64,000 nt of DNA from Chryseobacterium sp. IHB B 17019. Its GTDB lineage: Bacteria > Bacteroidota > Bacteroidia > Flavobacteriales > Weeksellaceae. Under the pieces are notes generated by a model. It saw nothing but the letters and a program-made list of their open reading frames with translations. It was not told where the DNA came from and did no database searches. Shown here one piece after another: positions 6,842 to 25,164 of the stretch (position 1 is its first letter; every line of letters starts with the position of its first letter). Location of the stretch: NCBI RefSeq assembly GCF_001456155.1, contig NZ_CP013293.1:3100001-3164000 (forward strand), written 5' to 3'. The position numbers and the translations under genes are program-made.

Positions 6842-6881
6842 TTTAAAATAAAATACTAATAACTAAAAAACAAAAGATATC

Positions 6882-10723: not shown

Positions 10724-13219
10724 TTAAATCAATCCAAACTGCTCAAAATGATGGGTAAAATGTTTTTTATGCATCAGTTCCCACATTTCTTTGTTTAATT
10801 TTCCGAACACGAAATTCATGTGCTCAGCTTGCGGATTTTCTTTATAATAAATGGAGAATCTCTTTAAATTATCCATGAAAGACTGTTTTGCAGCTTCCAA
10901 ATTTTTATGTCTTAATTCCAAAAGCTTCTCATCTTCAGCTAAGAATGGTGCAGGGAAATCTTTCGGCATTTTTCTGTGATTGTATAAAGAATCCTGCCAT
11001 TTTTCCAACTGCTCTTCCGGTGTAAAGCATTTATCTGCTTCCGGTTCGCCTAAACTCACCAAAACTCCGTGCTCCAAATGTTCAATCATCTGTTGAGGAG
11101 ACATTTTGCCCCAACTTGGCTGGGTGTTTTCAGTTAAGCCATTTAAAGTTTTTTGAATATTTTTTAAGTTTAAATCGATGAAGGGAGATTTTTTCGCAAC
11201 CAATGTTAAAATAGTCGCTACACAAACTATCTCATCTCTCTGATTCACAACCTCAACAAGCCACTTTACAACTCCGGAAGGAATATTTCTTCCCTTTACC
11301 CCACGGTTGATTTTTTCTTTTGCCGTCAAGTAAACCGTCATCGTATCTCCCGCATAAACAGGTTTGAAGAAAGAACAGTTTTCCAGTCCGTAATTTGCAA
11401 TAACAGGTCCTTTTTTACCTGAAACGAACAATCCCGCCGCCGCAGAAAGGATAAAATATCCGTGAGCAACGGTTTTATCGAAGATCGTTCCTGTTAAGCT
11501 CGTTGCATCTGTGTGTGCGTAGAAATGATCCCACGAAACATTGGAGAAATTAACGATATCAGCATCGGTAACCGTTCTGCCCGCTGTTTCCAACGAATCT
11601 CCAACTTCAACGTCTTCAAAATATTTCTGAAAAGGGTGTTTATCTGCAAATTTTTTCTCCGCTCCCTGCTGATATACTTTGGTAATTGCCGTCAATGTAT
11701 CCGGAGTACCCTGAATTGCTGTTTTCTGAAGGAAGAAATGAAGACCGCTTAATCCGCCCATTTCCTCGCCCCCACCAGCTCTTCCGGGACCACCATGCAT
11801 CAAAGTCGGAAGCGGCGAACCGTGACCTGTACTTTCTTTTGCATTATCTCTGTTTAACACGAAAATTCTACCGTGTTGAGAAGCCATTTTCCATGAAGTT
11901 TCCGCCACGAAGTTGTCGTCATAAGAAACAATTGAACCTACTAAACTTCCTTTTCCTCTTTTTGCTAAGGCTGCAGCTTCTTCCGCATCTTTGTAAGGCA
12001 TTAACGTAGAAACCGGCCCGAAAGCCTCGACATCATGAGAGATATTTTTCTCAAAAGGTTTATCATTTAAGAATAATTTCGGACTCATAAATGCTCCGTT
12101 TTCATAGCTTGCATCTACAAGCTCGTGTTTCCCGTCATAAACAAGTTCGTTTTCAGTTTTTAAAATATCAATTTTTCTTACCACTTCATCGTATTGCTGT
12201 CTTCCTACCAAAGAGCCCATTCTGGTTTCCCTGCTTAAAGGACTTCCGATTTTAGTCTGATCCAACGCTTTAGATAAAGCATTCTGAACGTCTCCAACTA
12301 AATTTTCCGGAACAATAATTCTTCTGATCGCCGTACATTTTTGTCCGGCCTTCGTGGTCATTTCGTTACGAACTTCTTTGATGAACAGATTAAATTCCGG
12401 AGTTCCTGGTTTAGCGTCCAATCCAAGAATTGAGCAGTTCAGAGAATCGGCTTCCATATTGAAACGAACAGCATTTCCGGCCACAGAAGGTAAAGATTTT
12501 AATTTTCTACCTGTCGTTGCAGAACCCGTAAATAATACAGAATCTCCATCCTGAACATAATCCAGAATATTTCCCGGCTCACCACAAACCAATTGAACGG
12601 CTCCTTCCGGAAGAATCCCACTTTCGATCATATCCTGGAAAACAGCATTCGTAAGATAAGAACCAAACGGAGATGGCTTCACGATTGAAGGAACGCCCGC
12701 CAACAATGAAGTTGACAGTTTTTCCAACATTCCCCAGACAGGGAAATTATAAGCATTAATCTGAATTGAAACCCCTTCACTCGGCGTTAAAATGTGAGTT
12801 CCCAGGAAAGTTCCATTAGCAGAGATTTTCTGAGTATCTCCATCTACCCAAAACGGAGTATTTGGGAGCATTCTCTTCGCCAATCCGGAATAGGTGAAAA
12901 ACGTACCGAAACCTCCTTCGATATCTACCCAGGAATCAACATGAGTTGCCCCGGTTTTATATGATAATTCATAATATTTTTTCTTTCTTTCCAACAGGTA
13001 AAGCGCCACCTTTTTCAACATTTCTCCACGATCATAGAAAGTCATTGAAGAAAGATTTTTGTAACCGACTGTTCTGCCATAATCTAGAGCCTGTTCAAAA
13101 TTCAGCCCTTCTGTATCAGAAACAGCAACCTTTTCTCCCGTTACAGCATTGAATAAAGGAATCCCGTTTCCGGTACCTTCAATCCATTCGCCGTGGATAT
13201 AGTTTTTTAGTTTGTTCAT
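10724..13219 (-). CDS. paaZ: PaaZ: oxepin-CoA hydrolase/semialdehyde dehydrogenase with extra C-terminal domain
   Basis: This 831-residue protein contains three parts. Residues 1 to about 515 are an aldehyde dehydrogenase with NAYNFPVWGMLEKLSTSL, FTGSATTGRKL and the catalytic Cys in KAGQKCTAIRR (about residue 295). Residues about 530-675 are a MaoC-type hotdog hydratase (FSNVSWDHFYAHTDA, VAHGYFILS). This pair opens the oxepin-CoA ring and oxidises the aldehyde in phenylacetate degradation. About 150 residues follow (about 683-831), beginning with NTQPSWGKMSPQQMIEHLEHG and resembling DUF1569/DinB-like helical proteins. Common PaaZ proteins, such as that of E. coli, end near residue 680. It is the last gene of the cluster and ends at a terminator. 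Confidence 0.9.
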   Translation of the reverse strand: MNKLKNYIHGEWIEGTGNGIPLFNAVTGEKVAVSDTEGLNFEQALDYGRTVGYKNLSSMTFYDRGEMLKKVALYLLERKKKYYELSYKTGATHVDSWVDIEGGFGTFFTYSGLAKRMLPNTPFWVDGDTQKISANGTFLGTHILTPSEGVSIQINAYNFPVWGMLEKLSTSLLAGVPSIVKPSPFGSYLTNAVFQDMIESGILPEGAVQLVCGEPGNILDYVQDGDSVLFTGSATTGRKLKSLPSVAGNAVRFNMEADSLNCSILGLDAKPGTPEFNLFIKEVRNEMTTKAGQKCTAIRRIIVPENLVGDVQNALSKALDQTKIGSPLSRETRMGSLVGRQQYDEVVRKIDILKTENELVYDGKHELVDASYENGAFMSPKLFLNDKPFEKNISHDVEAFGPVSTLMPYKDAEEAAALAKRGKGSLVGSIVSYDDNFVAETSWKMASQHGRIFVLNRDNAKESTGHGSPLPTLMHGGPGRAGGGEEMGGLSGLHFFLQKTAIQGTPDTLTAITKVYQQGAEKKFADKHPFQKYFEDVEVGDSLETAGRTVTDADIVNFSNVSWDHFYAHTDATSLTGTIFDKTVAHGYFILSAAAGLFVSGKKGPVIANYGLENCSFFKPVYAGDTMTVYLTAKEKINRGVKGRNIPSGVVKWLVEVVNQRDEIVCVATILTLVAKKSPFIDLNLKNIQKTLNGLTENTQPSWGKMSPQQMIEHLEHGVLVSLGEPEADKCFTPEEQLEKWQDSLYNHRKMPKDFPAPFLAEDEKLLELRHKNLEAAKQSFMDNLKRFSIYYKENPQAEHMNFVFGKLNKEMWELMHKKHFTHHFEQFGLI

Positions 13220-13288: not shown

Positions 13289-13867
13289 TTATTCTAAATT
13301 TAAAAAATCATATTCAACATTAGATTGATGATAATTCTTAAAAACATCTAACGAATCAAAATATTGCATGATCTCCATTCTATTCAATTTACTTTCTTTC
13401 TCAAGATTTAAATATGAATTATATGAAGAATGCTTCCATTGATCAACCTTATTTACAAATCCGTGATTAATTGGATTATTATGGATGTAATGCAAAACTT
13501 TCAGTAAATATTTCTCATCTGATATTTTCTTTCGCTTTACAGCGTTAAGAAAAAGAGCTCCTTTTCTATTATACTTTTTATTAAATGCCTTAGCATAAGA
13601 ATTCAGAAAATTACCAAAGTTCTTCATTAAAAACTGATGTTCGTCTTCAACATTTATACCTTCAATATTTTTAAATCTTAATAGTAAATGAAAATGATTC
13701 GGCAACAGACAATACGCATAAATATCTGCAATTTGGATAATATATTTATCTAACTGTTTCAGAAAAAATTGATAGTTTGTCTCTTCACGAAAAATAAATT
13801 CTTTTCCATTTACATGAGAAAAAACGTGATAAACAGATTCAAACTCAAAACTTTCTGTATTAATCAT
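13289..13867 (-). CDS. REP-associated tyrosine transposase (RAYT, Y1_Tnp)
   Basis: This 192-residue protein is a short single-strand DNA transposase of the Y1/HUH type. VYHVFSHVNGKEFIF opens the domain. LLPNHFHLLLRF (about 60-71) carries the HxH metal site. AYAKAFNKKYNRKGALF (about 95-111) carries the candidate nucleophilic tyrosine. IHNNPINHGFV and WKHSSYNSYL complete the family pattern. RAYTs are domesticated transposases that process REP hairpins. The gene is bracketed by two identical 33-bp palindromes, at 13244-13276 and 13897-13929, as expected for a REPtron. It interrupts the paa cluster between paaY and paaZ and has no insertion-sequence inverted ends. Confidence 0.85.
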   Translation of the reverse strand: MINTESFEFESVYHVFSHVNGKEFIFREETNYQFFLKQLDKYIIQIADIYAYCLLPNHFHLLLRFKNIEGINVEDEHQFLMKNFGNFLNSYAKAFNKKYNRKGALFLNAVKRKKISDEKYLLKVLHYIHNNPINHGFVNKVDQWKHSSYNSYLNLEKESKLNRMEIMQYFDSLDVFKNYHQSNVEYDFLNLE

Positions 13868-13943: not shown

Positions 13944-14537
13944 TTATTTCACATCATCCCAAATGCTGTAATCAACAATTTTGGTAGGCGTTTGCTGAAC
14001 ATATTCTGTAAAAGGCTCGCAAGGCAGAATCGCGTCTTTCCCTTCTCTTGCCAGTTCCTGATACAATTTTGTGCCTTCTGTTTTCCATTTAATCATTTCA
14101 TCAGAAACATCACGGATGATTTTTGCAGGACTTCCAACAATTAATTTTCTTGCATCACATTTGAAATTCGCAGGAACAAAAGCCAATGCACCAATGATGC
14201 ATTCATCTCCGATAATGGCTTTATCCATTACGACAGCATTCATTCCAACAAGACAATTCTTTCCGATGTGTCCGGAATGGATGATTGCACCGTGCCCAAT
14301 GTGTGCAGATTCTTCCAAAACAGTTTCAATCCCCGGAAAAACGTGAAGTGTACAGTTTTCCTGAACATTCGCACCGTCTTTGATGATAATTTTACCCCAG
14401 TCACCACGGATTACCGCGTTTGGACCGATATAAACTTCTTCACCAATTTCCACATTTCCGATAATCACCGCTTGTGGGTGAACGTAAGCGGAAGATTTTA
14501 TGATGGGACGAATTCCGTGATATGAGTAAATGTTCAT
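13944..14537 (-). CDS. paaY: PaaY-type gamma-carbonic-anhydrase family protein
   Basis: This 197-residue protein has left-handed beta-helix hexapeptide repeats (VIIGNVEIGEEVYIGPNAVI, about 24-43). The zinc-binding histidines of the gamma carbonic anhydrase fold lie in LHVFPG and HIGHGAIIHSGHIG (about 66-100). The length matches PaaY. In E. coli PaaY hydrolyses stalled CoA adducts and so spares CoA when the phenylacetate pathway backs up. The gene lies inside the paa cluster, upstream of the RAYT gene and 136 bp downstream of paaJ, with a palindromic repeat in the gap. Other gamma-class proteins look similar, but the context favours PaaY. Confidence 0.8.
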   Translation of the reverse strand: MNIYSYHGIRPIIKSSAYVHPQAVIIGNVEIGEEVYIGPNAVIRGDWGKIIIKDGANVQENCTLHVFPGIETVLEESAHIGHGAIIHSGHIGKNCLVGMNAVVMDKAIIGDECIIGALAFVPANFKCDARKLIVGSPAKIIRDVSDEMIKWKTEGTKLYQELAREGKDAILPCEPFTEYVQQTPTKIVDYSIWDDVK

Positions 14538-14673: not shown

Positions 14674-15882
14674 TTATACTTTTTCAATTACCATTGCATA
14701 ACCTTGTCCAACACCGATACAAAGAGTACACAAGGCATATTTTTTATTTTGTTTTTGAAGTTCTAAAGCAGCAGAACCGATAATTCTGGCACCGGAAACT
14801 CCAAGTGGGTGACCGATCGCGATGGCTCCTCCGTTTGGATTTACTCTTGAATCGTCATCTTTTAAACCTAAGCTTCTGGTTACTGCTAAAGATTGAGCGG
14901 CAAAAGCTTCATTCAATTCGATAACATCCATGTCGTCTAGTGAAAGATTCAATCTTTTCAATAATTTCTGAGTTGCTTCAACTGGTCCGATTCCCATGAT
15001 TCTTGGCTCAACACCAGCAACAGAAGATCCTAAAATCTTAGCTTTTGGTTTCAACCCGTATTTTTTAACCGCTTCTTCACTTGCTAAAATAAGAGCTGCG
15101 GCTCCGTCATTCATTCCTGAAGCATTTCCGGCAGTTACCGTTCCGCCTTCTTTTCTGAAAGCCGGACGAAGTTTTCCAAGACCTTCCATTGAAGAAGTTG
15201 GTTTAATGAATTCATCTTTATCGAAAATTTTTGGATCGCCTTTCTTTTGTGGAATTTCAACTTTTACAATTTCTTCTGCCAATCTTCCGCTTTCCTGAGC
15301 TTTTGTGGCTTTTTGTTGTGACCAAAGAGCAAATTTATCCTGATCTTCTCTGCTGATGTTGTGCATATCGGCTAAGTTTTCAGCAGTGTCTCCCATTCCG
15401 TCAACACCGTACATTTCTTTCATTTTTGGATTAATAAATCTCCATCCGAAAGTAGTGTCAAACATCTGGCTGTCTCTCCCAAAAGCTGTACTTGGTTTTG
15501 ACATTACATAAGGTGAACGCGTCATATGCTCCACTCCACCTGCGATGTAAATTTCACCTTCACCAGAAGCAATTGAACGGAAAGCATTCGCCACCGCCGA
15601 CATTCCAGAAGCACACAGTCTGTTTACTGTTTCACCTCCGATTTTGTACGGAAGTCCAGCTAATAAAAGTCCCATTCTGGCTACGTTTCTGTTATCTTCT
15701 CCCGCTTGATTTGCGCATCCGAAAATAACATCCTCAATTTCCTCAACAGGAACTTCAGGGTTTCTTGCAACAATGTCTTTTAGAACGATTGCCGCCAAAT
15801 CATCGGCTCTCACTTCTGATAAACCTCCCTGTAATTTTGAAATAGGAGTTCTGATGTAATCTATGATATATACGTTGTTCAT
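14674..15882 (-). CDS. paaJ: 3-oxoadipyl-CoA thiolase
   Basis: This 402-residue thiolase has the acylating Cys in NRLCASGMSAV (about residue 90), the His in GGAIAIGHPLGVSGAR (about residue 357) and the second Cys in LCIGVGQGYAM (about residue 387). Length and motifs fit PaaJ/PcaF, the enzyme that splits 3-oxoadipyl-CoA to succinyl-CoA and acetyl-CoA and also acts on 3-oxo-5,6-dehydrosuberyl-CoA. It is followed by a family B repeat on its upstream side and is preceded in transcription by paaI. The substrate is inferred from context, since the active-site motifs are shared by all degradative thiolases. Confidence 0.9.
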   Translation of the reverse strand: MNNVYIIDYIRTPISKLQGGLSEVRADDLAAIVLKDIVARNPEVPVEEIEDVIFGCANQAGEDNRNVARMGLLLAGLPYKIGGETVNRLCASGMSAVANAFRSIASGEGEIYIAGGVEHMTRSPYVMSKPSTAFGRDSQMFDTTFGWRFINPKMKEMYGVDGMGDTAENLADMHNISREDQDKFALWSQQKATKAQESGRLAEEIVKVEIPQKKGDPKIFDKDEFIKPTSSMEGLGKLRPAFRKEGGTVTAGNASGMNDGAAALILASEEAVKKYGLKPKAKILGSSVAGVEPRIMGIGPVEATQKLLKRLNLSLDDMDVIELNEAFAAQSLAVTRSLGLKDDDSRVNPNGGAIAIGHPLGVSGARIIGSAALELQKQNKKYALCTLCIGVGQGYAMVIEKV

Positions 15883-15964: not shown

Positions 15965-16378
15965 TTATAATTCTATTACTTTTTTTCCTATTTTATAAAC
16001 TGTCCCGACAAATTTCGCAACTAACTCTTCGTTTTGATTGGTAATTTTAATGTCGTAAACAGCGGTTTTCCTGGTGTCATTTACCAAAACACTTTCTGCT
16101 CTGAAAATATCGCCTTCTCTTCCGGCTTTGGTAAAATTGATGATACAGTTCAGGGCAACAGCCGCATCTCCGGTGTTGTTGGACGAAAATGCCAATGCAG
16201 AATCTGCAAAAGCAAATGTGACGCCTCCGTGAACGGTTTTTAACCCATTAATCATGTCCTTTTTGATGGGCATTTCCAGTAAACAATAATTTTCTTTAAC
16301 CTCGATTATTTTGATATTCATCCATTGGGAAAAATAATCCTGATCGAACATATAATCTGCAACTTGTCTTGGATTCAT
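15965..16378 (-). CDS. paaI: PaaI hotdog thioesterase
   Basis: This 137-residue hotdog-fold protein has the PaaI active-site motif VHGGVTFAFADSALAFSSN (about 49-67), with the catalytic Asp in ADSA. The long helix is preceded by MPIKKDMINGLKT. It hydrolyses hydroxyphenylacetyl-CoA or other stalled CoA esters, releasing CoA. The first codon lies 3 bp after the stop of a small unknown gene. The N-terminus, MNPRQVADYMFDQDYFSQ, is the normal helix start for this group. Confidence 0.9.
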   Translation of the reverse strand: MNPRQVADYMFDQDYFSQWMNIKIIEVKENYCLLEMPIKKDMINGLKTVHGGVTFAFADSALAFSSNNTGDAAVALNCIINFTKAGREGDIFRAESVLVNDTRKTAVYDIKITNQNEELVAKFVGTVYKIGKKVIEL

Positions 16379-16380
16379 TT

Positions 16381-16695
16381 CTAATTTACGCTTGTTATTT
16401 CTTCATATAATTCGTCAACCAATTTGTCATAAATACTCATGGTTTTACCAAGAATTATTTGCTCGTATGAAAGATTTTCTGAATTTGACGGATTTTCAGT
16501 TGGATAAGGAGCATTTACATCAATCCCATTTTCATTCGCTAATCTTTTGATCAGCTCTTTATATTTTTCATTAAATTTTCCTAATAATTCAAGCTTTTCC
16601 TGATAATCATTTATCGAAGAAAGCTCCTGAATGATGTATTCTTTTTCAATGAGAAGCCTTGTTTCTAATTCGGCCCGGAATCCGTCTATATCCAT
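16381..16695 (-). CDS. Small helical protein within the paa cluster
   Basis: This 104-residue protein is predicted mostly helical, with heptad-like charge patterns (RAELETRLLIEKEYIIQELS, about 6-25) and a Pro/Asn-rich turn (NAPYPTENPSNSEN) near residues 61-74. It is acidic, with no signal peptide or TM segment. The final helix is LGKTMSIYDKLVDELYEEI. The family is not recognised. It sits immediately ahead of paaI, with 2 bp between them, and downstream of paaH and a palindromic repeat. Its position makes it a candidate accessory protein of the phenylacetate pathway, but it may have been captured from elsewhere. Confidence 0.55.
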   Translation of the reverse strand: MDIDGFRAELETRLLIEKEYIIQELSSINDYQEKLELLGKFNEKYKELIKRLANENGIDVNAPYPTENPSNSENLSYEQIILGKTMSIYDKLVDELYEEITSVN

Positions 16696-16707: not shown

Positions 16708-16803
16708 TAATTTAACAATGTAGCAGTTTACCAATGAGATTCTTCGCTTTGCTCAGAATGACAGTGCGATTACTACATTCTTAGATTGGTATATTGTTAC
16801 ATT
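16708..16803. repeat. Intergenic palindromic repeat, family A copy 2
   Basis: Arms TTAACAATGTAGCAGTTTACC and a mirror ending GATTGGTATATTGTTACATT enclose the core GAGATTCTTCGCTTTGCTCAG. It runs into the last codons of paaH, so the repeat supplies the end of the coding sequence. Confidence 0.7.
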
Positions 16804-17930
16804 TTACGCAGTAATGAGCTTTGTCTGTATCTTTCTTCCTGATATTCTTCGTAAAGATACTGTAGGGTTTCGGAGATTTTTGCATAACCGATTTCTTTTC
16901 CCCAAGCCAATAATCCTTTTGGATAATTAACTCCTTTTTGCATTGCTAATTCAATATCTTCATCGTTCGCAACGCCTAATCTTTTCGCTTCCACGGCTTC
17001 ATTGATTAACATTGAAATAATTCTTAAAAATATTTGTTGATAAAGAGCATCGTCTTTTTGAGCAACAGGTTTTTCTGCACCTTCAGTGTAATCGTAGAAG
17101 CCTTTTCCGGTTTTTCTGCCGTGAAGTTTGGCTTCCGACATTCTTTGTTGTAATAAAGATGGTTTATATTTTGGGTCGTAGAAATAATCTTTGTAAACGG
17201 TTGTTGTTACAGAGAAATTTACATCAACACCAATTAAATCCATTAATTCAAAAGGCCCCATTTTGAAGTTTCCGATTGTTTTCATGGCTTCATCCACCTG
17301 TTCCGGAGTAGCGATATTCTCTTCAACAATTCTCAAGGCTTCACCGTAGTAAGGACGGGCAATTCTGTTCACAATAAATCCAGGAATATCCTTAGCAATC
17401 ACAGGCATTTTGCCCCAATCTTTCATGAGATTGTAGATTTTTTCCGCTAAAGATTTTTCTGTAAGTAAAGATGGAATGACCTCAACCAAAGGCATCAAAG
17501 GAGCCGGATTGAAGAAGTGAATTCCGATGAAACGCTCCGGTTTTTGTAATTCCGCACCGAGAGAGGTGATTGAAATTGAGGATGTATTAGAACCAATCAC
17601 ACAGCTTTCTGAAACATGCTTTTCTAACTCCGTGAAAACTTTGGTTTTAATTTCTTTATTTTCGATAATGGCTTCGATGATTAATTCGCAATCTTTGAAG
17701 TCCTTCAATTCGGTAGCGATGGAAATATTAGCTAGAATTTCAGTCATTTTTTCTGCCGAAATTTTTTGTTTATCAACCAATTTAGTTAATGTTTTTTCCA
17801 AACCTACCGTTGCCGTTTCTACTTGTTTTGCATTCGCGTCATAGACCCAAACTTTGCATCCGTTTGTTGCGGCTACTTGTGCGATGCCAATTCCCATAGT
17901 TCCGGCACCGATAATTCCTACATTTTTCAT
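16797..17930 (-). CDS. paaH: 3-hydroxyacyl-CoA dehydrogenase PaaH
   Basis: This 377-residue protein begins with the Rossmann NAD site VGIIGAGTMGIGIAQVAATN (about 4-23). The catalytic His/Glu region IGIHFFNPAPLMPLVEVIPS (about 136-155) follows, and then GFIVNRIARPYYGEALRI. A second, C-terminal 3HCDH-type helical domain is visible from ISMLINEAVEAKRLGVAN. PaaH oxidises 3-hydroxyadipyl-CoA to 3-oxoadipyl-CoA with NAD. The size is a little longer than short-chain HADs. It lies between paaG and the small unknown gene. Confidence 0.9.
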   Translation of the reverse strand: MKNVGIIGAGTMGIGIAQVAATNGCKVWVYDANAKQVETATVGLEKTLTKLVDKQKISAEKMTEILANISIATELKDFKDCELIIEAIIENKEIKTKVFTELEKHVSESCVIGSNTSSISITSLGAELQKPERFIGIHFFNPAPLMPLVEVIPSLLTEKSLAEKIYNLMKDWGKMPVIAKDIPGFIVNRIARPYYGEALRIVEENIATPEQVDEAMKTIGNFKMGPFELMDLIGVDVNFSVTTTVYKDYFYDPKYKPSLLQQRMSEAKLHGRKTGKGFYDYTEGAEKPVAQKDDALYQQIFLRIISMLINEAVEAKRLGVANDEDIELAMQKGVNYPKGLLAWGKEIGYAKISETLQYLYEEYQEERYRQSSLLRKM

Positions 17931-18013: not shown

Positions 18014-18814
18014 TTATTTTCCTTTATAATTAGGTTTTCTTTTTTGTAAAAAGGCTTGTACACCTTCTTTAAAATCTTCTGTTTCAGCTGCTGCCTGTTG
18101 CAAATCACCTTCTAATTCCAGTTGCTCTTTCAACGTATTATTGTAAGAAGCTGCGAATGCTTTTTTAGTTAATTTAATCGCTGCAGTCGGCATATTTGCC
18201 ATTTTTTCAAGGATTTCCATTGATTTTGGTGCGAATTCTTCCTCAGTGAAAACTTCAGCCACCAACCCGTAAGATTTTGCTTCTTCCGCAGATAATCTTT
18301 TTCCTGTAAATGCTAAGTAATTTGCCAATTGTCTCCCCAATAATTTTGGTAAGAAATACGTTCCACCCGTATCAGGAATCAATCCAATGTTTGAAAACGC
18401 CTGAGCAAAATATGATTTGTCAACTGCCAAAACAAAGTCAGAAATCAAAGCCAACATCGCACCAGCTCCTACTGCAGGGCCATTTACCAATGCTACAACC
18501 GGTTTTTTGCAATGTGTAATTTCTGTAACCAGAGGATTGTAATAATCTACTACAATTTTTCTGATAATATCGTTGTCATGATGCTCATTGCCTTGCACAA
18601 AAGCATCATCCAGGTTCTGACCAGAGCAAAAGGCTCTTCCTCTCCCTGAAATGGCAACACATCTTACTGTTTCGTCATCGCTGCATTCTTTAATAAAATC
18701 TTTTAGATCTGATAAAGAAGGCTTTGTAAGCGCGTTCATTGTGTCTGGCTGATTGAGGTAAGCAATTTTAAGTTTTCCGTCAAAATGCGTTTCAATATCG
18801 AGTTGTGTGTACAT
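18014..18814 (-). CDS. paaG: 2-(1,2-epoxy-1,2-dihydrophenyl)acetyl-CoA isomerase PaaG
   Basis: This 266-residue crotonase has AISGRGRAFCSGQNLDDAF (about 54-72) and the oxyanion loop VNGPAVGAGAMLALISDFVL (about 113-132). The GLIPDTGGTYFLPK motif (about 144-157) carries the Asp used by isomerase-type members instead of the hydratase Glu pair. PaaG converts the epoxide to oxepin-CoA and also isomerises the later dehydroadipyl-CoA. Order and size match paa operons elsewhere, with paaD upstream and paaH downstream. Confidence 0.9.
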   Translation of the reverse strand: MYTQLDIETHFDGKLKIAYLNQPDTMNALTKPSLSDLKDFIKECSDDETVRCVAISGRGRAFCSGQNLDDAFVQGNEHHDNDIIRKIVVDYYNPLVTEITHCKKPVVALVNGPAVGAGAMLALISDFVLAVDKSYFAQAFSNIGLIPDTGGTYFLPKLLGRQLANYLAFTGKRLSAEEAKSYGLVAEVFTEEEFAPKSMEILEKMANMPTAAIKLTKKAFAASYNNTLKEQLELEGDLQQAAAETEDFKEGVQAFLQKRKPNYKGK

Positions 18815-18974: not shown

Positions 18975-19439
18975 TTAGTGACATTTAAAATAATCAAAAG
19001 GCTCTAAACAGTCTAAACACTGATATGAAGCCTTACACAAAGTAGACCCGAATCTACTGATCTGCTTTGAGTTCATAGAACCACAACGCGGGCATTTTTT
19101 CGGTTTCCCGATGTAGTGTTCGTCGGCTCCTTTTTCGGGAGGTGAGATTCCGTAGACACGAAGTTTTTCTCTCGCTTCATCTGTCAACCAATCTGTTGTC
19201 CAAATCGGAAACATTTTAGTGACCACTTTCGCGTCCCAACCGTTTTCCTTCATGATCTTGATGATGTCTTCCTCAATAGTAAACATAGCGGGACAGGCAG
19301 AATAAGTCGGAGTAATGGTTACTTCACAAGAATTCTCGCTCGTAACTTTTGCTTCTCTTACAATGCCTAATTCCACGATATTGATTACCGGGATTTCGGG
19401 ATCGGGAACGAGTTCTAATATTTCTAAAGGATTTTTCAA
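18975..19439 (-). CDS. paaD: PaaD, assembly factor of the phenylacetyl-CoA epoxidase
   Basis: This 154-residue protein has a DUF59/MIP18 domain at the N-terminus (LVPDPEIPVINIVELGIVRE, about 10-29, and TYSACPAMFTIEEDI). A zinc-ribbon-like tail carries CPRCGSMNSKQ (about 117-127) and QCLDCLEPFDYFKC. It is thought to help mature the di-iron or iron-sulfur centres of the PaaABCE complex. It is followed by a dispersed repeat region and a REP-like palindrome before paaC. Confidence 0.9.
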   Translation of the reverse strand: MKNPLEILELVPDPEIPVINIVELGIVREAKVTSENSCEVTITPTYSACPAMFTIEEDIIKIMKENGWDAKVVTKMFPIWTTDWLTDEAREKLRVYGISPPEKGADEHYIGKPKKCPRCGSMNSKQISRFGSTLCKASYQCLDCLEPFDYFKCH

Positions 19440-19458
19440 TCTTTTTTACTTTGATTTT

Positions 19459-19546
19459 TTTAACGCAAAGTGCGCAAAGTTTTTTTTGACTACTAAACGT
19501 TTTTAAGTTCACAAAGGCGTTTCACTTAGCAAAGTCAACTAAGAAT
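19459..19546. repeat. Dispersed repeat upstream of paaD
   Basis: The stretch AACGCAAAGTGCGCAAAGTT, then CACAAAGGCGTTTCACTTAGC, is shared with a diverged copy at about 26030-26106, which has CAAAGGCGTTTCACTCAGCC. The role is unknown; it looks like a dispersed intergenic repeat. Confidence 0.55.
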
Positions 19547-19578
19547 AAGTAAACTGATATATTTTACACGTTATTTGT

Positions 19579-19611
19579 AAACCTAACAGGTTTTAAAAAC
19601 CTGTTAGGTTT
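19579..19611. repeat. REP-like palindrome, copy 3 (A variant)
   Basis: This 33-bp palindrome starts AAACCTAACAGGTTT and mirrors itself. It differs from the RAYT-flanking copies by the G-to-A change in each arm, which keeps pairing. It lies directly after the paaC stop. Confidence 0.85.
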
Positions 19612-19617
19612 CTATCT

Positions 19618-20367
19618 CTACCATGTGCACCCCGGATACGCTCTCTGCATATATTGCAATTCACAAAGGATAAATCCGAAATATTCTGTGTGATATCCTG
19701 TTCTGGATTTTGGCTGCATGAAATGATCTGTCGGATATTCCAACCCAAAATCGGCGAAATCTTTTTCTGTGATTGAGATAAACTGGTTGTATAATTCATC
19801 CACATTCGGAGTGATATTTAAAGCAATTAAATCATCTTCCCCTTCCACTTTTGCAAATAAACCTTTTGTATATTCCCAGATATTTTCGATGGCTTTTTCT
19901 AAACGCATTTTACTTTCTTCTGTTCCCTGAGCGAAAATTTTCATCCAGGAAGCAGCGTGAGTGTAATGATATCTCACTTCTTTCAAAGATTTCTGAGCAA
20001 TGGCAGAAAGTTCTTCGTCAGCAGAATTTGACAATGCTTCATACATTAATTTCTGATAGACAGAGAAAGTATACACTTTAAGAATCGTCTGTGCATAATC
20101 TTCATTCGGAAGCTCGGTTAAATGTGCATTCAGATATTCATGTTCGTATCTTAAAAATGCCAAATCATCTTCACTTTTACCGTTATCGGCAACTCTTGAG
20201 GCGTAAACATAGAAGTTATTGGCCTGTCCAAGTTCATCCAAAGCGATGTTTGTCAATGCAATATCTTCCTCTAAATAAGGACCTTCACCGCACCACGCAG
20301 ACAAACGCTGTCCCATAATGAAACTGTCGTCCGCTAGTTTTAATAAATAATTATATAATGGGTTCAT
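19618..20367 (-). CDS. paaC: PaaC, structural subunit of the phenylacetyl-CoA epoxidase
   Basis: This 249-residue ferritin-like protein carries IALTNIALDELGQANNFYVY (about 35-54) and KEVRYHYTHAASWMKIFA (about 129-146), the paired helices that in PaaA hold the di-iron centre. PaaC pairs with PaaA but has no functional metal site in known complexes. Sequence and size agree. A palindromic repeat fills the 87 bp to paaB. Confidence 0.9.
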   Translation of the reverse strand: MNPLYNYLLKLADDSFIMGQRLSAWCGEGPYLEEDIALTNIALDELGQANNFYVYASRVADNGKSEDDLAFLRYEHEYLNAHLTELPNEDYAQTILKVYTFSVYQKLMYEALSNSADEELSAIAQKSLKEVRYHYTHAASWMKIFAQGTEESKMRLEKAIENIWEYTKGLFAKVEGEDDLIALNITPNVDELYNQFISITEKDFADFGLEYPTDHFMQPKSRTGYHTEYFGFILCELQYMQRAYPGCTW

Positions 20368-20370
20368 TGT

Positions 20371-20449
20371 TTAGTAGATTTCAGATTTCAGACATTAGAT
20401 TTCAGATTGACAATAAGTCTGGTATCTGATATCACATCTTAAAATCTTT
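20371..20449. repeat. Intergenic palindromic repeat, family B copy 2
   Basis: Repeats of AGATTTCAGATTTCAGACATTAG and a partial mirror (GTCTGGTATCTGATATC) are found between paaB and paaC. It resembles the element at 15889-15962. Confidence 0.6.
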
Positions 20450-20454
20450 ATTAA

Positions 20455-20736
20455 TTACATATTTTTTACATCGTTAGGAATATCGTAGAACGTCGGGTGA
20501 CGGTACAATTTGTCATCAGCAGGATCAAAGAAAGCTTCTTTATCCACTCCTTCTGAAGTCACAATATATTTACTTGGAACCACCCAAACTGAAGTTCCTT
20601 CCTTTCTTCTTGTATAAACGTCTCTTGCGTTCTGCAAAGCCATTTCTGCTGTTGGCGCCTGTACAATTCCAACGTGTTTGTGAGATAATCCCGGTTTAGT
20701 CTGAATAAACACTTCCCACATATCTAATTGACTCAT
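20455..20736 (-). CDS. paaB: PaaB, subunit of the phenylacetyl-CoA epoxidase
   Basis: This 93-residue protein has the PaaB features: WEVFIQTKPGLSHKHVGIVQ (about 7-26), a short helix AEMALQNARDVYTRRKEG, and WVVPSKYIVTS (about 52-62). PaaB bridges the PaaAC heterodimers in the epoxidase. It lies downstream of a membrane-protein gene that separates it from paaA; most clusters place paaA and paaB side by side. Confidence 0.9.
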   Translation of the reverse strand: MSQLDMWEVFIQTKPGLSHKHVGIVQAPTAEMALQNARDVYTRRKEGTSVWVVPSKYIVTSEGVDKEAFFDPADDKLYRHPTFYDIPNDVKNM

Positions 20737-20786
20737 TTCTTTATGTTATAAATTTAAATGATTTAAAAATTCTTTATTTAAATATA

Positions 20787-21731
20787 TTATACTTCACTCC
20801 TATTTTTAATGACTTGAAGTATATTATTCTGTATATCTTTCATTATCCATTCTCCCCAAAGCCCAGCATAAAAATTAAATGTTGTGTTGAGTGAAAAATT
20901 TGAATATAAAATCAAATCATATTCATTTTCTGATATTTTTTTAAGTACATATGTTCCGTTAAGCATATCAAAATATTCACCTCCAATTAAAATATGTTCA
21001 TCTAAAGTCGTTGATGGAATATCATAAGTATTTGCTTTTATTTCAAAGCTCATTTTATTAAAATCCGAATAATCAGTAACCGTTTCGTTGAAGATTAAAC
21101 CTTTTTCGAAAACAGCTTTTCTAAATCCACCTATTTCATTCTTATCTAAAACAGCTTCTACAGGCATCGGAAAACCTAAAAACTTTGTTAGCTTTGAATG
21201 CTCTTCATTAGATCCAATCCTTTTTACGGAAGTTACATTTTCCCAAATTTTCTCTTTGGTTGAATGAATTCTAATGCTTGTAAAAGTTTTAAACACCTGT
21301 TTTTGAGTTTTTATTGATTTCTCAATTGGTGCAATTAAAAAAGGCAATAATATTACAAGTGAAATATTCAATCTATCTCTTTTTCTAGATTTTATATAGC
21401 CTCCAAACAAGCCTCCTAATGATGAAAACAATAAAAACAAAGGTGTTATCATTATCCAGCAAGCCCATCCTTCAATTTGAAATGCTATTGTGACTGCTAC
21501 AAAAAAACAAACTCCTACCCAAGGAAAAAAAATTCTATACGTATAGCTAGGTTTATCTTTCTCTTTTGACAAATAAATCATCAAAGCCCCTAACACAAAA
21601 GGAACAGTAATGAAAAAATTCAGAGACATGACACTGGAAAAATTTTCAAAAATATTTGCTCCAAATAACACTCTGATAAATGTTACTACAATTACAGGTA
21701 TAAAAATAATTTTAAAATAATCCCAGTTCAT
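20787..21731 (-). CDS. Membrane protein with SRPBCC-like C-terminal domain, inserted in paa operon
   Basis: This 314-residue protein starts at MNWDYFKIIFIP. A longer frame from 21773 runs into paaA and is unlikely. Residues about 1-140 hold four hydrophobic segments: about 8-25, 35-50, 65-80 and 87-112. A positively charged loop follows (SRKRDRLN). The C-terminal half (about 155-310) resembles a START/SRPBCC fold: TSIRIHSTKEKIWENVTSVK, TDYSDFNKMSFEI and YVLKKISENEYDLILYSNF. I cannot assign a function. It lies 10 bp after paaA and 50 bp before paaB. It may bind or export a hydrophobic pathway intermediate, but that is speculation. Confidence 0.65.
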   Translation of the reverse strand: MNWDYFKIIFIPVIVVTFIRVLFGANIFENFSSVMSLNFFITVPFVLGALMIYLSKEKDKPSYTYRIFFPWVGVCFFVAVTIAFQIEGWACWIMITPLFLLFSSLGGLFGGYIKSRKRDRLNISLVILLPFLIAPIEKSIKTQKQVFKTFTSIRIHSTKEKIWENVTSVKRIGSNEEHSKLTKFLGFPMPVEAVLDKNEIGGFRKAVFEKGLIFNETVTDYSDFNKMSFEIKANTYDIPSTTLDEHILIGGEYFDMLNGTYVLKKISENEYDLILYSNFSLNTTFNFYAGLWGEWIMKDIQNNILQVIKNRSEV

Positions 21732-21741
21732 AGAATCTAAA

Positions 21742-22680
21742 TTACTTAGTCGCTTCTTGTTGTTTCTCTGCAAAAGCAGCCGCCGCTTCTTTTACCCATG
21801 AATTTTCTCTTTGAGCTTTTCTCTTCGTTTCGATACGTTTCTTATTACAAGGTCCGTTTCCTTTTAGAATTGTCATGAATTCATCCCAGGGAAGTTCTCC
21901 GAAATCGTAATGCTGTCTTTCCTCATTCCATTTTAAATCTTTATCAGGAATGGTTAATCCCAAGAATTCCGCCTGAGGAACAGTAACGTCAATAAATCTC
22001 TGACGAAGACTGTCGTTACTTTCTCTTTTTACTCTGTAATTCATAGAGATTTTTGAGTTTGGCGAACTGTCATCATTTGGGCCAAACATCATTAAAGCCG
22101 GCCACCAGAAACGATCTAACGAAGCCTGAGCCATTTCTTTCTGCTGTTTTGTACCACGGCAAAGTGCCATTAAAATCTCGTAACCCTGTCTTTGGTGAAA
22201 AGATTCTTCTTTACAGATTTTCACCATCGCTCTTGAATAAGGACCATAAGAATTTCCCATCAACATAACCTGATTCATAATCGCTGCACCATCAACCAAC
22301 CAACCGATTGCGCCGATATCCGCCCAACTCAATGTCGGATAGTTGAAAATACTTGAATATTTTGCTTTTCCTTCCAACATATCTTCATAAGTGGCGTCTC
22401 TGTCAGCTCTGATGGTTCCGTTTCCTAGAGTTTCTGTTGCAGAATATAAATATAAACCGTGACCAGCTTCATCCTGAACTTTGGCCAAAAGAGCCATTTT
22501 TCGTCTCAATGAAGGTGCTCTGGAGATCCAGTTGGCTTCCGGCAACATTCCGACAATCTCAGAATGTGCGTGCTGTGAAATCTGACGAACCAATAGTTTT
22601 CTGTAATCATCGGGCATTACATCTTTTGGTTCTACTTTATTTTCGTCGTGTACGTATTGTACAAATTTTTCTAAATCCAT
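21742..22680 (-). CDS. paaA: PaaA, catalytic subunit of the phenylacetyl-CoA epoxidase
   Basis: This 312-residue ferritin-like oxygenase has [19 protein letters not shown] (about 68-86), which supplies Glu and His iron ligands, and [16 protein letters not shown] (about 156-171), which supplies the second EXXH. A polar C-terminal tail carries RKAQREN. It inserts one oxygen atom into the aromatic ring of phenylacetyl-CoA to form the 1,2-epoxide, receiving electrons from PaaE. It is preceded by a family A repeat and by paaE. Confidence 0.95.
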
Positions 22681-22690
22681 AATTTTTCCA

Positions 22691-22762
22691 ATTTAACAAT
22701 GTATCAGTCTAACAATGTACCAATGATTGTTACACTGGTAAACTATTACATTGTTATATTAA
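22691..22762. repeat. Intergenic palindromic repeat, family A copy 4
   Basis: The gap between paaE and paaA holds TTAACAATGTATCAGTCTAAC on one arm and TAACTATTACATTGTTATATTA-like sequence on the other. It is the shortest copy and lacks the GAGATTCTTC core. Confidence 0.7.
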
Positions 22763-23848
22763 TTAAACATCATAATTAAGCATCACCACATTCGTTGTCG
22801 GGTGACATTGACACGTTAGAACGTAACCTCTGGCCACTTCATCTTCGGTAAGCGCGTAGTTTTTCTCCATGAAAACTTCTCCTTCCAAAACCTCGGCTTT
22901 ACACGTACAACAAACTCCTCCTTTGCACGCAAAAGGTACGGGAAGATTGTCTTTCAATGCTTTATCTAAGATACTCTCTTTTTTGGAATTAAGGTGGAAC
23001 GAATATTCATCGTCATCAATGATTACTGTCACCATACTTTCGATATTGGCAATTGCCTTGAATTCATCACTCATTTCCTCAGAATTTTCTTCGTCAGGAG
23101 CGGTGAAATATTCAAATAAAACCTGAATGGCAGGTACTTTTTTATCCTTCTTTAGATAATCTGCAATCCCTTTAATCATCTCCGAAGGTCCGCAGATGAA
23201 ATATGTTGCTTCTTTAACATCGATTTCAGCATATCTTTCAAATAAAAGCTCTAATTTTTCAGGAGAAATTCTTCCTTCAAAAATCGGATCTTCATGCTGT
23301 TCGCGGCTTACTAAATAAACAACTTTCAGTCTTCCGTTAAAAGTTTCAACCAATTTATCGATCTCTGCCTTTTTCATCACATGATTCATGCTTCTGTTGC
23401 TGTAGAACAGATAAGCGTTTGAATTCGGTTCTTGGTAAAGGCTTTCTTTAATATTTGACAATACCGGAGAAATTCCGCTTCCTGCCGCCAGACCGATGTA
23501 AGTTTTCACATTAGTTGGGTGATAAGTGGTGTTAAAACCACCCATTGGAGGCATTACTTCAAGCATTTCATCCATGTGAAGATGTTCGTTGAAATAACCG
23601 GAAACTTTTCCGTTTTCCAGCAGCTTCACCAATACTTCTAGCGTGTTGCTTTTTTCACTCGGAGCATTGCAGATAGAATAAGAACGTCTCTCTTCGTTTC
23701 CGTCGATCATCATTCGGAAATTAAGATACTGCCCCTGCTTGAACCTGAATTTATCCTTCAGTTCCTCAGGAATTTCAACGGCTACATTCACTGCATCGTT
23801 AGTATCTTTCTGAACCTTTACGGTTTTTAATTTATAAAATGAATTCAT
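22763..23848 (-). CDS. paaE: PaaE, reductase of the phenylacetyl-CoA epoxidase
   Basis: This 361-residue protein has an FNR-type flavin domain with RRSYSICNAPSE (about 54-65) and the nucleotide site IGLAAGSGISPVLSN (about 112-126). NAD(P)-binding YFICGPSEMIKGI follows. The C-terminal plant-type ferredoxin has FACKGGVCCTCKAEV and VLTCQ, giving the C-x4-C-x2-C...C cluster. It passes electrons from NADPH to PaaA. Its ATG overlaps the paaK stop by four bases (ATGA), so the two are translationally coupled. Confidence 0.95.
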   Translation of the reverse strand: MNSFYKLKTVKVQKDTNDAVNVAVEIPEELKDKFRFKQGQYLNFRMMIDGNEERRSYSICNAPSEKSNTLEVLVKLLENGKVSGYFNEHLHMDEMLEVMPPMGGFNTTYHPTNVKTYIGLAAGSGISPVLSNIKESLYQEPNSNAYLFYSNRSMNHVMKKAEIDKLVETFNGRLKVVYLVSREQHEDPIFEGRISPEKLELLFERYAEIDVKEATYFICGPSEMIKGIADYLKKDKKVPAIQVLFEYFTAPDEENSEEMSDEFKAIANIESMVTVIIDDDEYSFHLNSKKESILDKALKDNLPVPFACKGGVCCTCKAEVLEGEVFMEKNYALTEDEVARGYVLTCQCHPTTNVVMLNYDV

Positions 23849-25164
23849 TTTGTTTTTAGTATTCTATTAATTTTTCCACCTTCGCACTTAGGCAAACTGT
23901 CCTGAGCATGAATTTTCACTTTCGTGGTGATTCCTACCCGTTTTTTTATTTCGTTTTCTATACTTTTTCCAAAGTTTCCGACAAAAATAGCATAATCGTC
24001 GGTATTTATTTCAATTTGTTTGGCTTTTACAAACTCATCATCAATTTCCAGATCAATATCCAACGCAACACACATCTGTTCTTTTTCAATCGGTGTTAAA
24101 TAATAATTTGGAACGACTCCTTCCACATGAGAAAATGCTTCTTCAATCTGACTTGGATACACATTCACCCCTCTTACAATCAGCATATCATCGGCTCTTC
24201 CAAGAATCGGTTTCATTTTAACCATGGTTCTTTTTGAGTTTTTGTCATAGTAAAGACTCGTTATATCGTTCGTCCAATACCGTAAAAGTGGCATTGCTTT
24301 TTTCGTTAAAGTCGTAATCACCAAAACGCCTTCTTCCCCGAAAGGAACCGGTTGTTTTGTAATCGGATCTAAAATTTCAGGATAAAAATGATCTTCCCAA
24401 ATGTAAGCTCCACCTTTTTCCTCAAAATCTTCCATCGAAACTCCGGGTCCGATAATTTCACTTAACCCATAAATATTGGTTGCATGAACGCCTAGTTTTT
24501 CTTCAATATGATGTCTGATAATCTCCGTCCAAGGTTCTGAGCCTAAAACGGCATATTTTAAACTGATTTCGTCTGCCGAGATTCCTCTTTTCGCAAATTC
24601 ATCAGCGATTGTTAAAGCGTAAGAAGGTGAACAGCAGATTACTTCAGGCTTAAAATCTATAATTAAATCAACCTGTCTCGTTGTCATTCCGCCCGAAATC
24701 GGGAGAACGCTCATTCCTAATTTTTCAGCTCCGTAATGAAGTCCAAGTCCGCCTGTGAAAATTCCGTATCCATAAGCGTTGTGTAACTGCATTCCCGGTT
24801 TTGCTCCTGCTGCATTCAATGATCTTGCTACTACTTCGCTGAATAAATCAACGTCTTCTTTCGTATATCCTACAACCGTTGGTTTTCCTGTTGTTCCGCT
24901 TGAACAGTGAATTCTCTGCAGTTCATTTTTCGGAACAGTAAATAATCCGAACGGATAATTGTCTCTTAAATCCTGTTTGTACGTAATCGGTAGTTTTGAA
25001 ATATCTTCAATTGACCTTATTTCTCCAGTTGATATTCCTAATTCATCAAATTTTCCTTTATAAAAATCCGACTTCTCCTTAAGATAACCCACCAAATTCA
25101 CCAGTCTCTCGGACTGGAGCTTTCTCAATTCATTAAGACTTAGATATTCAACATCAAACTTCAT
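23845..25164 (-). CDS. paaK: Phenylacetate-CoA ligase
   Basis: This 439-residue AMP-forming ligase has the ATP loop HCSSGTTGKPTVVGYTK (about 86-102) and LKYAVLGSEPWTE (about 201-213). The mid-domain NIYGLSEIIGPGVSMED and LIVRGVNVYPSQIEEA (about 329-344) in the C-terminal swinging domain match PaaK. It activates phenylacetate with CoA and ATP and begins the pathway. A dyad CTAACATTTGTTAG lies 7 bp before the start codon, a likely TetR-type operator. It is the first gene of the paa run. Confidence 0.95.
   Translation of the reverse strand: MKFDVEYLSLNELRKLQSERLVNLVGYLKEKSDFYKGKFDELGISTGEIRSIEDISKLPITYKQDLRDNYPFGLFTVPKNELQRIHCSSGTTGKPTVVGYTKEDVDLFSEVVARSLNAAGAKPGMQLHNAYGYGIFTGGLGLHYGAEKLGMSVLPISGGMTTRQVDLIIDFKPEVICCSPSYALTIADEFAKRGISADEISLKYAVLGSEPWTEIIRHHIEEKLGVHATNIYGLSEIIGPGVSMEDFEEKGGAYIWEDHFYPEILDPITKQPVPFGEEGVLVITTLTKKAMPLLRYWTNDITSLYYDKNSKRTMVKMKPILGRADDMLIVRGVNVYPSQIEEAFSHVEGVVPNYYLTPIEKEQMCVALDIDLEIDDEFVKAKQIEINTDDYAIFVGNFGKSIENEIKKRVGITTKVKIHAQDSLPKCEGGKINRILKTK

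What the first reader, a model, noticed from the sequence alone, without database searches (positions are those of the whole stretch)
10724..11171. PaaZ with a fused DUF1569/DinB-like C-terminal domain
PaaZ is 831 residues long, about 150 more than the usual two-domain form. The extra region starts near NTQPSWGKMSPQQMIEHLEH and ends in MHKKHFTHHFEQFGL. DinB-like helical bundles often bind metal through His residues, and several are present. The domain may handle a reactive thiol-linked by-product or act as a CoA chaperone; that is inference.
Basis: partly seen in the sequence, partly recalled or inferred. Interest (0 to 1): 0.5.

Follow-up and report, generated by a model that had tools for sequence, protein, structure and literature searches.

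The report
Three-domain PaaZ with DinB-fold tail
In some Bacteroidota the enzyme that opens the aromatic ring during phenylacetate breakdown carries an extra metal-site domain at its end, and related bacteria keep a relative of that domain as a separate gene in the same gene cluster, which suggests an overlooked helper step in this pathway.

Summary
The 831-aa ORF (10724-13219, minus) is a PaaZ (TIGR02278 over residues 4-676) with a real extra C-terminal domain (about 677-831). That domain belongs to the DinB superfamily, at the edge of the Pfam models: PF07606 (DUF1569) scores 23.8 bits alone (cut-off 21) and 20.2 in the full protein. AlphaFold2 gives a confident helical bundle whose solved-structure look-alikes are mainly DinB/YfiT and thiol-transferase proteins. 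The DinB-type His triad is kept in 113 of 114 (H714) and 114 of 114 (H820, H824) fused copies; dN/dS is about 0.03.

Fused PaaZ form one clade, seen in four sampled families; most Bacteroidota PaaZ lack the domain. New here: a separate, well-supported clade of standalone relatives (clade P) lies within 3 kb of paa genes in 8 of 18 fetched cases, often beside paaY or paaZ, and all 19 carriers in the class sample have an unfused PaaZ. The domain therefore probably serves the PaaZ/PaaY step. I infer, without proof, a metal- and thiol-dependent (bacillithiol?) handling of the reactive ring-opened CoA aldehyde or its shunt product. New variant of a known enzyme; chemistry untested.

The parts
10724..13219 (-). 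paaZ, 831-aa three-domain protein (ALDH + MaoC-type ECH + DinB-fold domain)
   Evidence: ORF; TIGR02278 853.2 bits; 6jql match 3-678
11192..13210 (-). PaaZ core, residues 4-676; ALDH residues E256/C295 and ECH residues D564/H569/H586 (same motifs as E. coli D561/H566/H583, mapping inferred) are invariant in 14 fused proteins
   Evidence: residue roles from PMC6739347 passages
10727..11191 (-). C-terminal DinB-fold (DUF1569-like) domain, residues 677-831
   Evidence: PF07606 23.8 bits on the isolated domain, 21.9 bits in the genome scan; AF2 pLDDT 88.1, pTM 0.85; DinB-type fold matches
11078..11083 (-). E713-H714, first conserved metal-ligand candidate (helix 2)
   Evidence: E713 in 114 of 114 and H714 in 113 of 114 fused domains, both in 18 of 18 clade P rows
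10748..10762 (-). H820-x-x-H823-H824 of the last helix (H820 and H824 form an HxxxH pair)
   Evidence: H820, H823, H824 each 114 of 114 fused, 18 of 18 clade P, 41 of 41 other relatives
13944..14537 (-). paaY-like gene (PaaY is the thioesterase of the PaaZ shunt product in other bacteria)
   Evidence: TIGR02287 249.2 bits, below its equivalog cut-off of 319.6
14674..15882 (-). paaJ, 3-oxoadipyl-CoA thiolase
   Evidence: NF006551 653.2 bits, over cut-off
15965..16378 (-). paaI-like hotdog thioesterase
   Evidence: TIGR02286 112.4 bits, below the cut-off of 118.9
16797..17930 (-). paaH-like 3-hydroxyacyl-CoA dehydrogenase
   Evidence: NF006124 over cut-off; TIGR02279 below its cut-off
18014..18814 (-). 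crotonase of the cluster (paaG/paaF type)
   Evidence: TIGR02280 235.8 bits, below the cut-off of 345
18975..25164 (-). paaD, paaC, paaB, paaA, paaE, paaK: epoxidase and ligase genes of the same cluster
   Evidence: paaB seen as a 96-aa frame (name by sequence look and recall)

Best explanation
The extra region is a catalytically competent DinB-superfamily (S-transferase-like) metal domain that serves the ring-opening step of phenylacetate degradation. In one PaaZ lineage it is fused in cis; in other Bacteroidota a related standalone gene (clade P) sits in the paa cluster beside paaY or paaZ and would act in trans. Most likely mechanism: the ECH domain of PaaZ opens oxepin-CoA to a very reactive CoA semialdehyde, part of which escapes oxidation and cyclises to a seven-membered shunt product that ties up CoA and inhibits PaaZ. 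The DinB domain, with a divalent metal held by H714/H820/H824, activates a low-molecular-weight thiol (bacillithiol is the candidate, since the host carries bshC) and adds it to the escaped electrophile or its ring-opened relative, so that it is trapped or returned to the pathway, while PaaY hydrolyses what has already cyclised. Shown: the domain, its conservation, His triad and fold class, and the paa linkage of a related clade. Inferred: metal, thiol, substrate and direction of the reaction.
For: DinB clan by Pfam score and fold. His triad kept across fused, clade P and other relatives, matching the three His that are the only fully conserved residues of the eight B. subtilis DinB-type bacillithiol transferases, all EDTA-sensitive (PMC5815605 passages). 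Purifying selection. One origin: 19 fused PaaZ cores form one clade, SH-aLRT 98. Clade P (18 rows, support 100/99 and 100/100) holds all 8 standalone genes found within 3 kb of a paa gene, against 0 of 41 other relatives (Fisher p 2e-5); it abuts paaY in L289 and L291, follows paaY in L323 and L290, lies 156 bp from paaZ in L196 and 1.2 kb upstream in L288. All 19 clade P genomes of the class sample carry an unfused PaaZ, against 87 of 171 other unfused genomes (p 8.6e-6). The PaaZ intermediate is described as highly reactive, and the shunt product as a PaaZ inhibitor and CoA sink removed by PaaY (PMC7497051 passages). bshC is present in the host (E 2e-104).
Against: No activity, metal or thiol was tested. 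bshC is in 186 of 198 class genomes, so its presence discriminates nothing; 17 of 18 tree members of clade P have it (G147, 85% complete, does not). The characterised Bst enzymes did not use CoA. 10 of 18 clade P genes are not near a recognised paa gene. None of 40 further unfused PaaZ neighbourhoods holds such a gene (chosen after the linked ones were set aside), so the function is dispensable or met otherwise. Fused domains and clade P are not shown to be sisters: holding them together is neither rejected nor supported (p-AU 0.126), so the step from clade P to the fused domain rests on superfamily plus shared context. Carriers within families are not independent.
Confidence: 0.4

Rival explanations
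1. The domain is a structural or assembly module: it steadies the PaaZ oligomer or docks PaaZ onto partners such as PaaY, with the His cluster kept for a structural metal.
For: Fused in cis, or encoded next to paaY/paaZ; PaaZ works as an oligomer whose two active sites lie about 51 A apart and which channels its intermediate (PMC6739347 passages; hexameric, trilobed in PMC7497051 passages).
Against: The ligand-type residues are the most conserved positions across fused, clade P and unrelated-context relatives, as expected of an active site shared by the superfamily. PaaZ is kept both with and without the domain inside the window's own family (genera g1 and g121 against g241).
Confidence: 0.2
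2. The domain is a second thioesterase, hydrolase or CoA-ester binding module that clears the CoA-bound shunt product, as PaaY does, or holds CoA esters for the core.
For: Adjacency of clade P to paaY. The four fusion partners seen for this domain all use CoA thioesters: PaaZ, an ECH_1 crotonase (L198), HMG-CoA reductase (L199) and a GNAT acetyltransferase (L301).
Against: Four partners is a small, hand-found sample; among 71 HMG-CoA reductase genomes of the order one shows the fusion by frame length, and the two other long frames were read and lack it. paaY is still present in the window and in linked clusters. Characterised relatives are thiol transferases, not esterases (passages).
Confidence: 0.2
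3. The fusion is incidental: a generic DinB-type gene next to paaZ was joined to it by loss of a stop and is tolerated, acting on unrelated electrophiles.
For: Relatives occur beside unrelated genes (ribonucleotide reductase L206, GH20 hexosaminidase L203); the genome has two standalone DUF1569 paralogues.
Against: Strong purifying selection, retention through several families, one well-supported fusion clade, and a paa-linked standalone clade that was delimited by sequence, not by linkage.
Confidence: 0.15

Closest known systems
PaaZ of E. coli (TIGR02278; PDB 6jql)
   Same: ALDH plus MaoC-type ECH, about 680 residues aligned; catalytic motifs kept
   Different: E. coli PaaZ ends there; this one has a further 155-residue DinB-fold domain
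DinB/YfiT (S-transferase-like) superfamily, bacillithiol transferases BstA-H and mycothiol S-transferase
   Same: Fold class and three-His site (H67/H160/H164 of BstA/YfiT from PMC5815605 passages); bacillithiol gene bshC in the host
   Different: Here a C-terminal part of a CoA-thioester enzyme; no thiol or transferase activity shown
Mycothiol-dependent maleylpyruvate isomerase (PDB 2nsf)
   Same: Top VIA row (Z 7.8, rmsd 3.6, 120 aligned, tied with others); also works on a ring-opened aromatic product (recalled)
   Different: Standalone enzyme with another C-terminal domain (recalled); its substrate is not a CoA ester (recalled); Z in this range is not specific
DUF1569 (PF07606)
   Same: Scores over the family cut-off for the isolated domain
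   Different: Only 1 of 52 fused domains hits it at E <= 0.001; clade P hits DinB_2 more often (15 of 17) than DUF1569 (5 of 17)
Two-domain thiol transferases (EgtB, LmbV type)
   Same: Thiol-transfer DinB domain joined to a second domain that sets the other substrate (PMC5815605 passages)
   Different: Those partners are not CoA-pathway enzymes (recalled); here the partner is the whole bifunctional PaaZ

Membership tests
PaaZ (TIGR02278) | Equivalog score over the curated cut-off across ALDH and ECH | tested here: met
   853.2 bits against 562.8, residues 4-676
PaaZ (TIGR02278) | Catalytic residues of both domains | tested here: met
   E256, C295, D564, H569, H586 invariant in 14 fused proteins; correspondence with E. 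coli D561/H566/H583 read from the motif, roles from PMC6739347 passages
PaaZ (TIGR02278) | Ring-opening and aldehyde oxidation activity | not testable with these tools
   no assay; the gene lies in a full paa cluster
DinB superfamily (Pfam clan CL0310) | Significant score to a clan member | tested here: met
   PF07606 23.8 bits, cut-off 21, isolated domain; 21.9 bits in the genome scan; the full-length scan gives 20.2. Clan membership of DUF1569 from a PMC4520260 passage
DinB superfamily (Pfam clan CL0310) | DinB/YfiT-type four-helix bundle | tested here: met
   VIA rows 1-24 at Z 3.9-7.8, 15 of them named DinB/YfiT, DUF664, thiol transferase or MDMPI, next row Z 2.9. Caveat: Foldseek has none at E <= 0.001, best 0.11, and Z under 8 alone is weak for helical bundles
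DinB superfamily (Pfam clan CL0310) | His in helix 2 plus HxxxH in the last helix | tested here: met
   H714 113 of 114, H820 and H824 114 of 114 fused domains; helices 33-47 and 135-152 of the model
DUF1569 (PF07606) | Family-level score across members | tested here: inconclusive
   1 of 52 fused domains, 5 of 17 clade P at E <= 0.001
Bacillithiol transferase | Host makes bacillithiol | tested here: inconclusive
   bshC in the own genome, E 2e-104, but only this one gene was sought and it is in 186 of 198 class genomes
Bacillithiol transferase | Metal-dependent bacillithiol transfer | not testable with these tools
   needs purified protein
Mycothiol-dependent maleylpyruvate isomerase | Thiol-dependent cis-trans isomerase activity | not testable with these tools
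   only a tied structural similarity

The most novel reading that the evidence does not exclude
The phenylacetate pathway of many Bacteroidota has an unrecognised thiol-dependent step: a DinB-fold metalloenzyme, recruited once as the third domain of PaaZ and once more as a separate gene beside paaY/paaZ, adds bacillithiol to the ring-opened unsaturated CoA semialdehyde or its cyclised shunt form and thereby isomerises or rescues it, a bacillithiol counterpart of mycothiol-dependent maleylpyruvate isomerase.
Probability: 0.15. Interest if true: 0.75.

Novelty: new variant of a known kind. Interest (0 to 1): 0.5.

Why it matters
PaaZ is the branch point between phenylacetate breakdown and tropone formation. 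How cells keep its reactive aldehyde in check has so far been answered by channelling and by PaaY (PMC7497051 and PMC6739347, passages). A metal- and possibly thiol-dependent domain attached to or co-encoded with this step would add a third strategy, give DUF1569-like proteins a first pathway, and offer a built-in substrate hint for a superfamily whose natural substrates are mostly unknown. My literature searches (DUF1569; PaaZ with DinB; PaaZ with oxepin-CoA or Bacteroidetes; PaaZ with Flavobacteri and domain; phenylacetate with bacillithiol) listed no paper that by title or abstract describes it; that library is open-access only, and I read passages of six papers.

Tried and rejected
Full-length AlphaFold2 model (14 sequences): pLDDT 54.5, pTM 0.47, unusable, so no statement on where the domain sits on PaaZ. 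PDB sequence search with the domain or its profile: only 2eh3, a transcriptional regulator (E 0.24 and 0.0069), aligned over the middle of the domain and taken as spurious. Foldseek gave no match at E <= 0.001. bshC co-occurrence was tried as a test of the bacillithiol idea and is uninformative. HMG-CoA reductase fusion was checked as a recurrent architecture and is rare. Long frames of G338 (L233), G567 (L250) and G570 (L241) were read and are not fusions of this domain. Replicating clade P in the phylum sample gave only 2 clear members, G168 and G361, both with PaaZ (the split at about 165 bits was mine, and G168 was already counted), too few to test. Fused rows did not come out as one clade in the domain tree, though one clade is not rejected (p-AU 0.392). 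Not classified to clade: 5 of 54 class-sample profile hits (G069, G234, G150, G079 and the second G133 hit), whose letters were not fetched. Rows under 120 aa (L197_11, L230_4) were left out of the domain tree and the residue counts; both come from broken frames, and L230_4 does not keep the HHF motif. L306 (G087) has a frame break and was left out of alignment A4.

Full report
OBSERVATION. The minus-strand ORF 10724..13219 encodes 831 aa. TIGR02278 (PaaZ) covers residues 4-676 at 853.2 bits, well over its cut-off of 562.8, and E. coli PaaZ 6jql aligns to 3-678. About 155 residues are therefore extra. The catalytic motifs of both PaaZ domains are present and invariant in 14 fused proteins (E256, C295; D564, H569, H586, with residue roles from passages of PMC6739347), so the extra part is added to a complete enzyme. 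The gene closes a full paa cluster: paaK, E, A, B, C, D, a paaG/F crotonase, paaH, I, J, a paaY-like gene, then paaZ; several of these score below the strict equivalog cut-offs, as listed in the parts.

WHAT THE EXTRA PART IS. PF07606 (DUF1569) scores 23.8 bits on the isolated domain (cut-off 21) and 20.2 in the full protein; the genome scan gives 21.9. Across 52 aligned fused domains only 1 hits DUF1569 and 3 hit DinB_2 at E <= 0.001, so the family label is borderline while the DinB clan is the safe level (DUF1569 is in clan CL0310 according to a passage of PMC4520260). AlphaFold2 on 52 sequences gives pLDDT 88.1 and pTM 0.85. Foldseek against the PDB finds nothing at E <= 0.001; its best rows are a putative metal-binding protein 2p1a (E 0.11) and a YfiT-like protein 2rd9 (E 0.24). 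The VIA second look gives 24 rows at Z 3.9-7.8, 15 of them named DinB/YfiT, DUF664, mycothiol/bacillithiol transferase or maleylpyruvate isomerase, and then drops to Z 2.9. The top row, mycothiol-dependent maleylpyruvate isomerase (Z 7.8), is tied with others and is not evidence of that function.

CONSERVATION. Of 114 fused domains (34 from genome-search loci, 80 from the genome-contig scan), H714 is His in 113 and E713, H820, H823, H824, Q827 are kept in all 114; the same positions are kept in 18 of 18 clade P rows, and the four His in 41 of 41 other relatives (rows under 120 aa left out). H714 lies in helix 2 and H820/H824 form an HxxxH pair in the last helix, the arrangement of the three His reported as the only fully conserved residues of the eight metal-dependent bacillithiol transferases of B. 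subtilis (PMC5815605 passages). Within the genus the domain has a median dN/dS of 0.026 (18 of 23 pairs with usable dS), against 0.031 for ALDH and 0.013 for MaoC. Across genera it diverges faster than the core (40-53% against 54-94% identity).

DISTRIBUTION. Genus: 60 of 60 genomes, 59 full-length, one (G013) in two frames. Class: 8 of 114 PaaZ genomes among 198 reach residue 830-831; 7 matches stop before 640 and are undecided. Phylum: 11 of 64 among 296. Order: 17 of 67 among 148; in the window's own family, genera g1 (13 of 13) and g121 (2 of 2) are fused while g241 (0 of 5) has a different, unfused PaaZ of 54-55% identity. The samples share genomes; fused copies fall in family codes f1, f2, f4 and f34. 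In a tree of 74 PaaZ cores the 19 fused rows are one clade (SH-aLRT 98), consistent with a single fusion followed by vertical or lateral spread.

STANDALONE RELATIVES AND THE LINK TO PAA. A profile of the fused domain finds, besides the fused genes, a tier of standalone genes at roughly E 1e-18 to 1e-45. In a 75-row tree all seven of those then known to lie in paa clusters fell into one clade (P, 18 rows, 100/99; 100/100 without the paralogues). Measured afterwards, 8 of 18 clade P genes lie within 3 kb of a paa-like ORF, against 0 of 41 other relatives (p 2e-5). Order: abutting paaY in L289 and L291; after paaY in L323 and L290; 156 bp from paaZ in L196; 1.2 kb upstream of paaZ, same strand, in L288; 2 kb from paaY in L306; 2.5 kb from paaD on the opposite strand in L307. 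All 19 class-sample carriers of clade P (18 by tree, G255 by profile score) have an unfused PaaZ, against 87 of 171 other non-fused genomes (p 8.6e-6); the other classified standalone relatives co-occur with PaaZ in 12 of 21 genomes (tallied by hand, tested). None of the 8 fused genomes shows a clade P gene: seven have the fused copy as their only hit, and the second hit of G009 does not reach E 1e-30 with the clade P profile. Against the linkage: 10 of 18 clade P genes are not near a recognised paa gene, and 40 further unfused PaaZ neighbourhoods, chosen after setting the linked ones aside, hold none. Relatedness within families inflates all these p-values.

OTHER FUSIONS. The same domain is joined to an ECH_1 crotonase in G391 (L198; 44% identical to the window crotonase at 5269-6033, whose homologue follows the fused paaZ within about 1 kb in L308, L309 and L311-L315), to HMG-CoA reductase in G326 (L199) and to a GNAT acetyltransferase in G133 (L301). 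With PaaZ, all four partners use CoA thioesters, a suggestive but small and hand-found set.

HOW IT MAY WORK. PaaZ makes a highly reactive CoA semialdehyde; what escapes oxidation cyclises to a seven-membered CoA ester that inhibits PaaZ and drains CoA, and PaaY removes it (PMC7497051 passages). A DinB-fold metal domain placed on PaaZ, or encoded beside paaY, is well placed to act on these electrophiles. Superfamily members use thiols such as bacillithiol (PMC5815605 passages) and the host has bshC, but so do 186 of 198 class genomes. The thiol, metal and substrate are inference. The main rivals are a scaffold role, a CoA-ester binding or hydrolysing role, and an incidental fusion; the last is the least likely given selection and the clade P linkage.

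VERDICT. Real, conserved, and a new variant of PaaZ rather than a new kind of system; the paa-linked standalone clade makes a pathway role likely and directly testable. The full-length structure prediction failed, so the geometry of the three domains is unknown.

Noticed in passing
window 20787-21773 (-): A 328-aa ORF with no Pfam match at E <= 0.001 sits between paaA and paaB and overlaps the paaA end; it looks inserted into the epoxidase genes.
   Followed up: partly
window 16381-16695 (-): A 104-aa ORF without Pfam match lies between paaI and paaH.
   Followed up: partly
window 13289-13867 (-): A 192-aa ORF resembling a REP-type (Y1) transposase by eye lies between paaY and paaZ; no Pfam match at E <= 0.001, so the label is recalled.
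   Followed up: partly
window 6302-7424 (+): Two tandem similar ORFs; the first has a phage tail collar domain.
   Followed up: partly
window 8452-9387 (+): PI-PLC-X domain protein near the paa cluster.
   Followed up: no
G000 C1:2012751-2013173 and C1:1581581-1582012 (L006, L007): Two standalone DUF1569 paralogues elsewhere in the own genome with the same His pattern.
   Followed up: partly
L199 7081-8811 (-), genome G326: HMG-CoA reductase with a C-terminal DUF1569 domain, 577 aa.
   Followed up: yes
L198 7137-8351 (-), genome G391: DUF1569-ECH_1 fusion next to a MarR regulator, a two-glyoxalase-domain (HPPD-like) protein and a carboxymuconolactone-decarboxylase-family protein, in a genome without a PaaZ match.
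   Followed up: partly
L301 6935-7900 (+), genome G133: GNAT acetyltransferase-DUF1569 fusion, 322 aa.
   Followed up: no
G013 C1:4228945-4231438 (-): paaZ split into two overlapping frames in one genome of the genus, frame break or assembly error.
   Followed up: no
genus g241 of the window's family (G588, G602, G613, G621, G632): Carries an unfused PaaZ only 54-55% identical to the window's, as if PaaZ had been exchanged within the family.
   Followed up: no
L200, L206, L208, L215: Standalone relatives of the domain sit beside ORFs of ribonucleotide-reductase size; confirmed as ribonucleotide reductase large and small chains for L206 only.
   Followed up: partly
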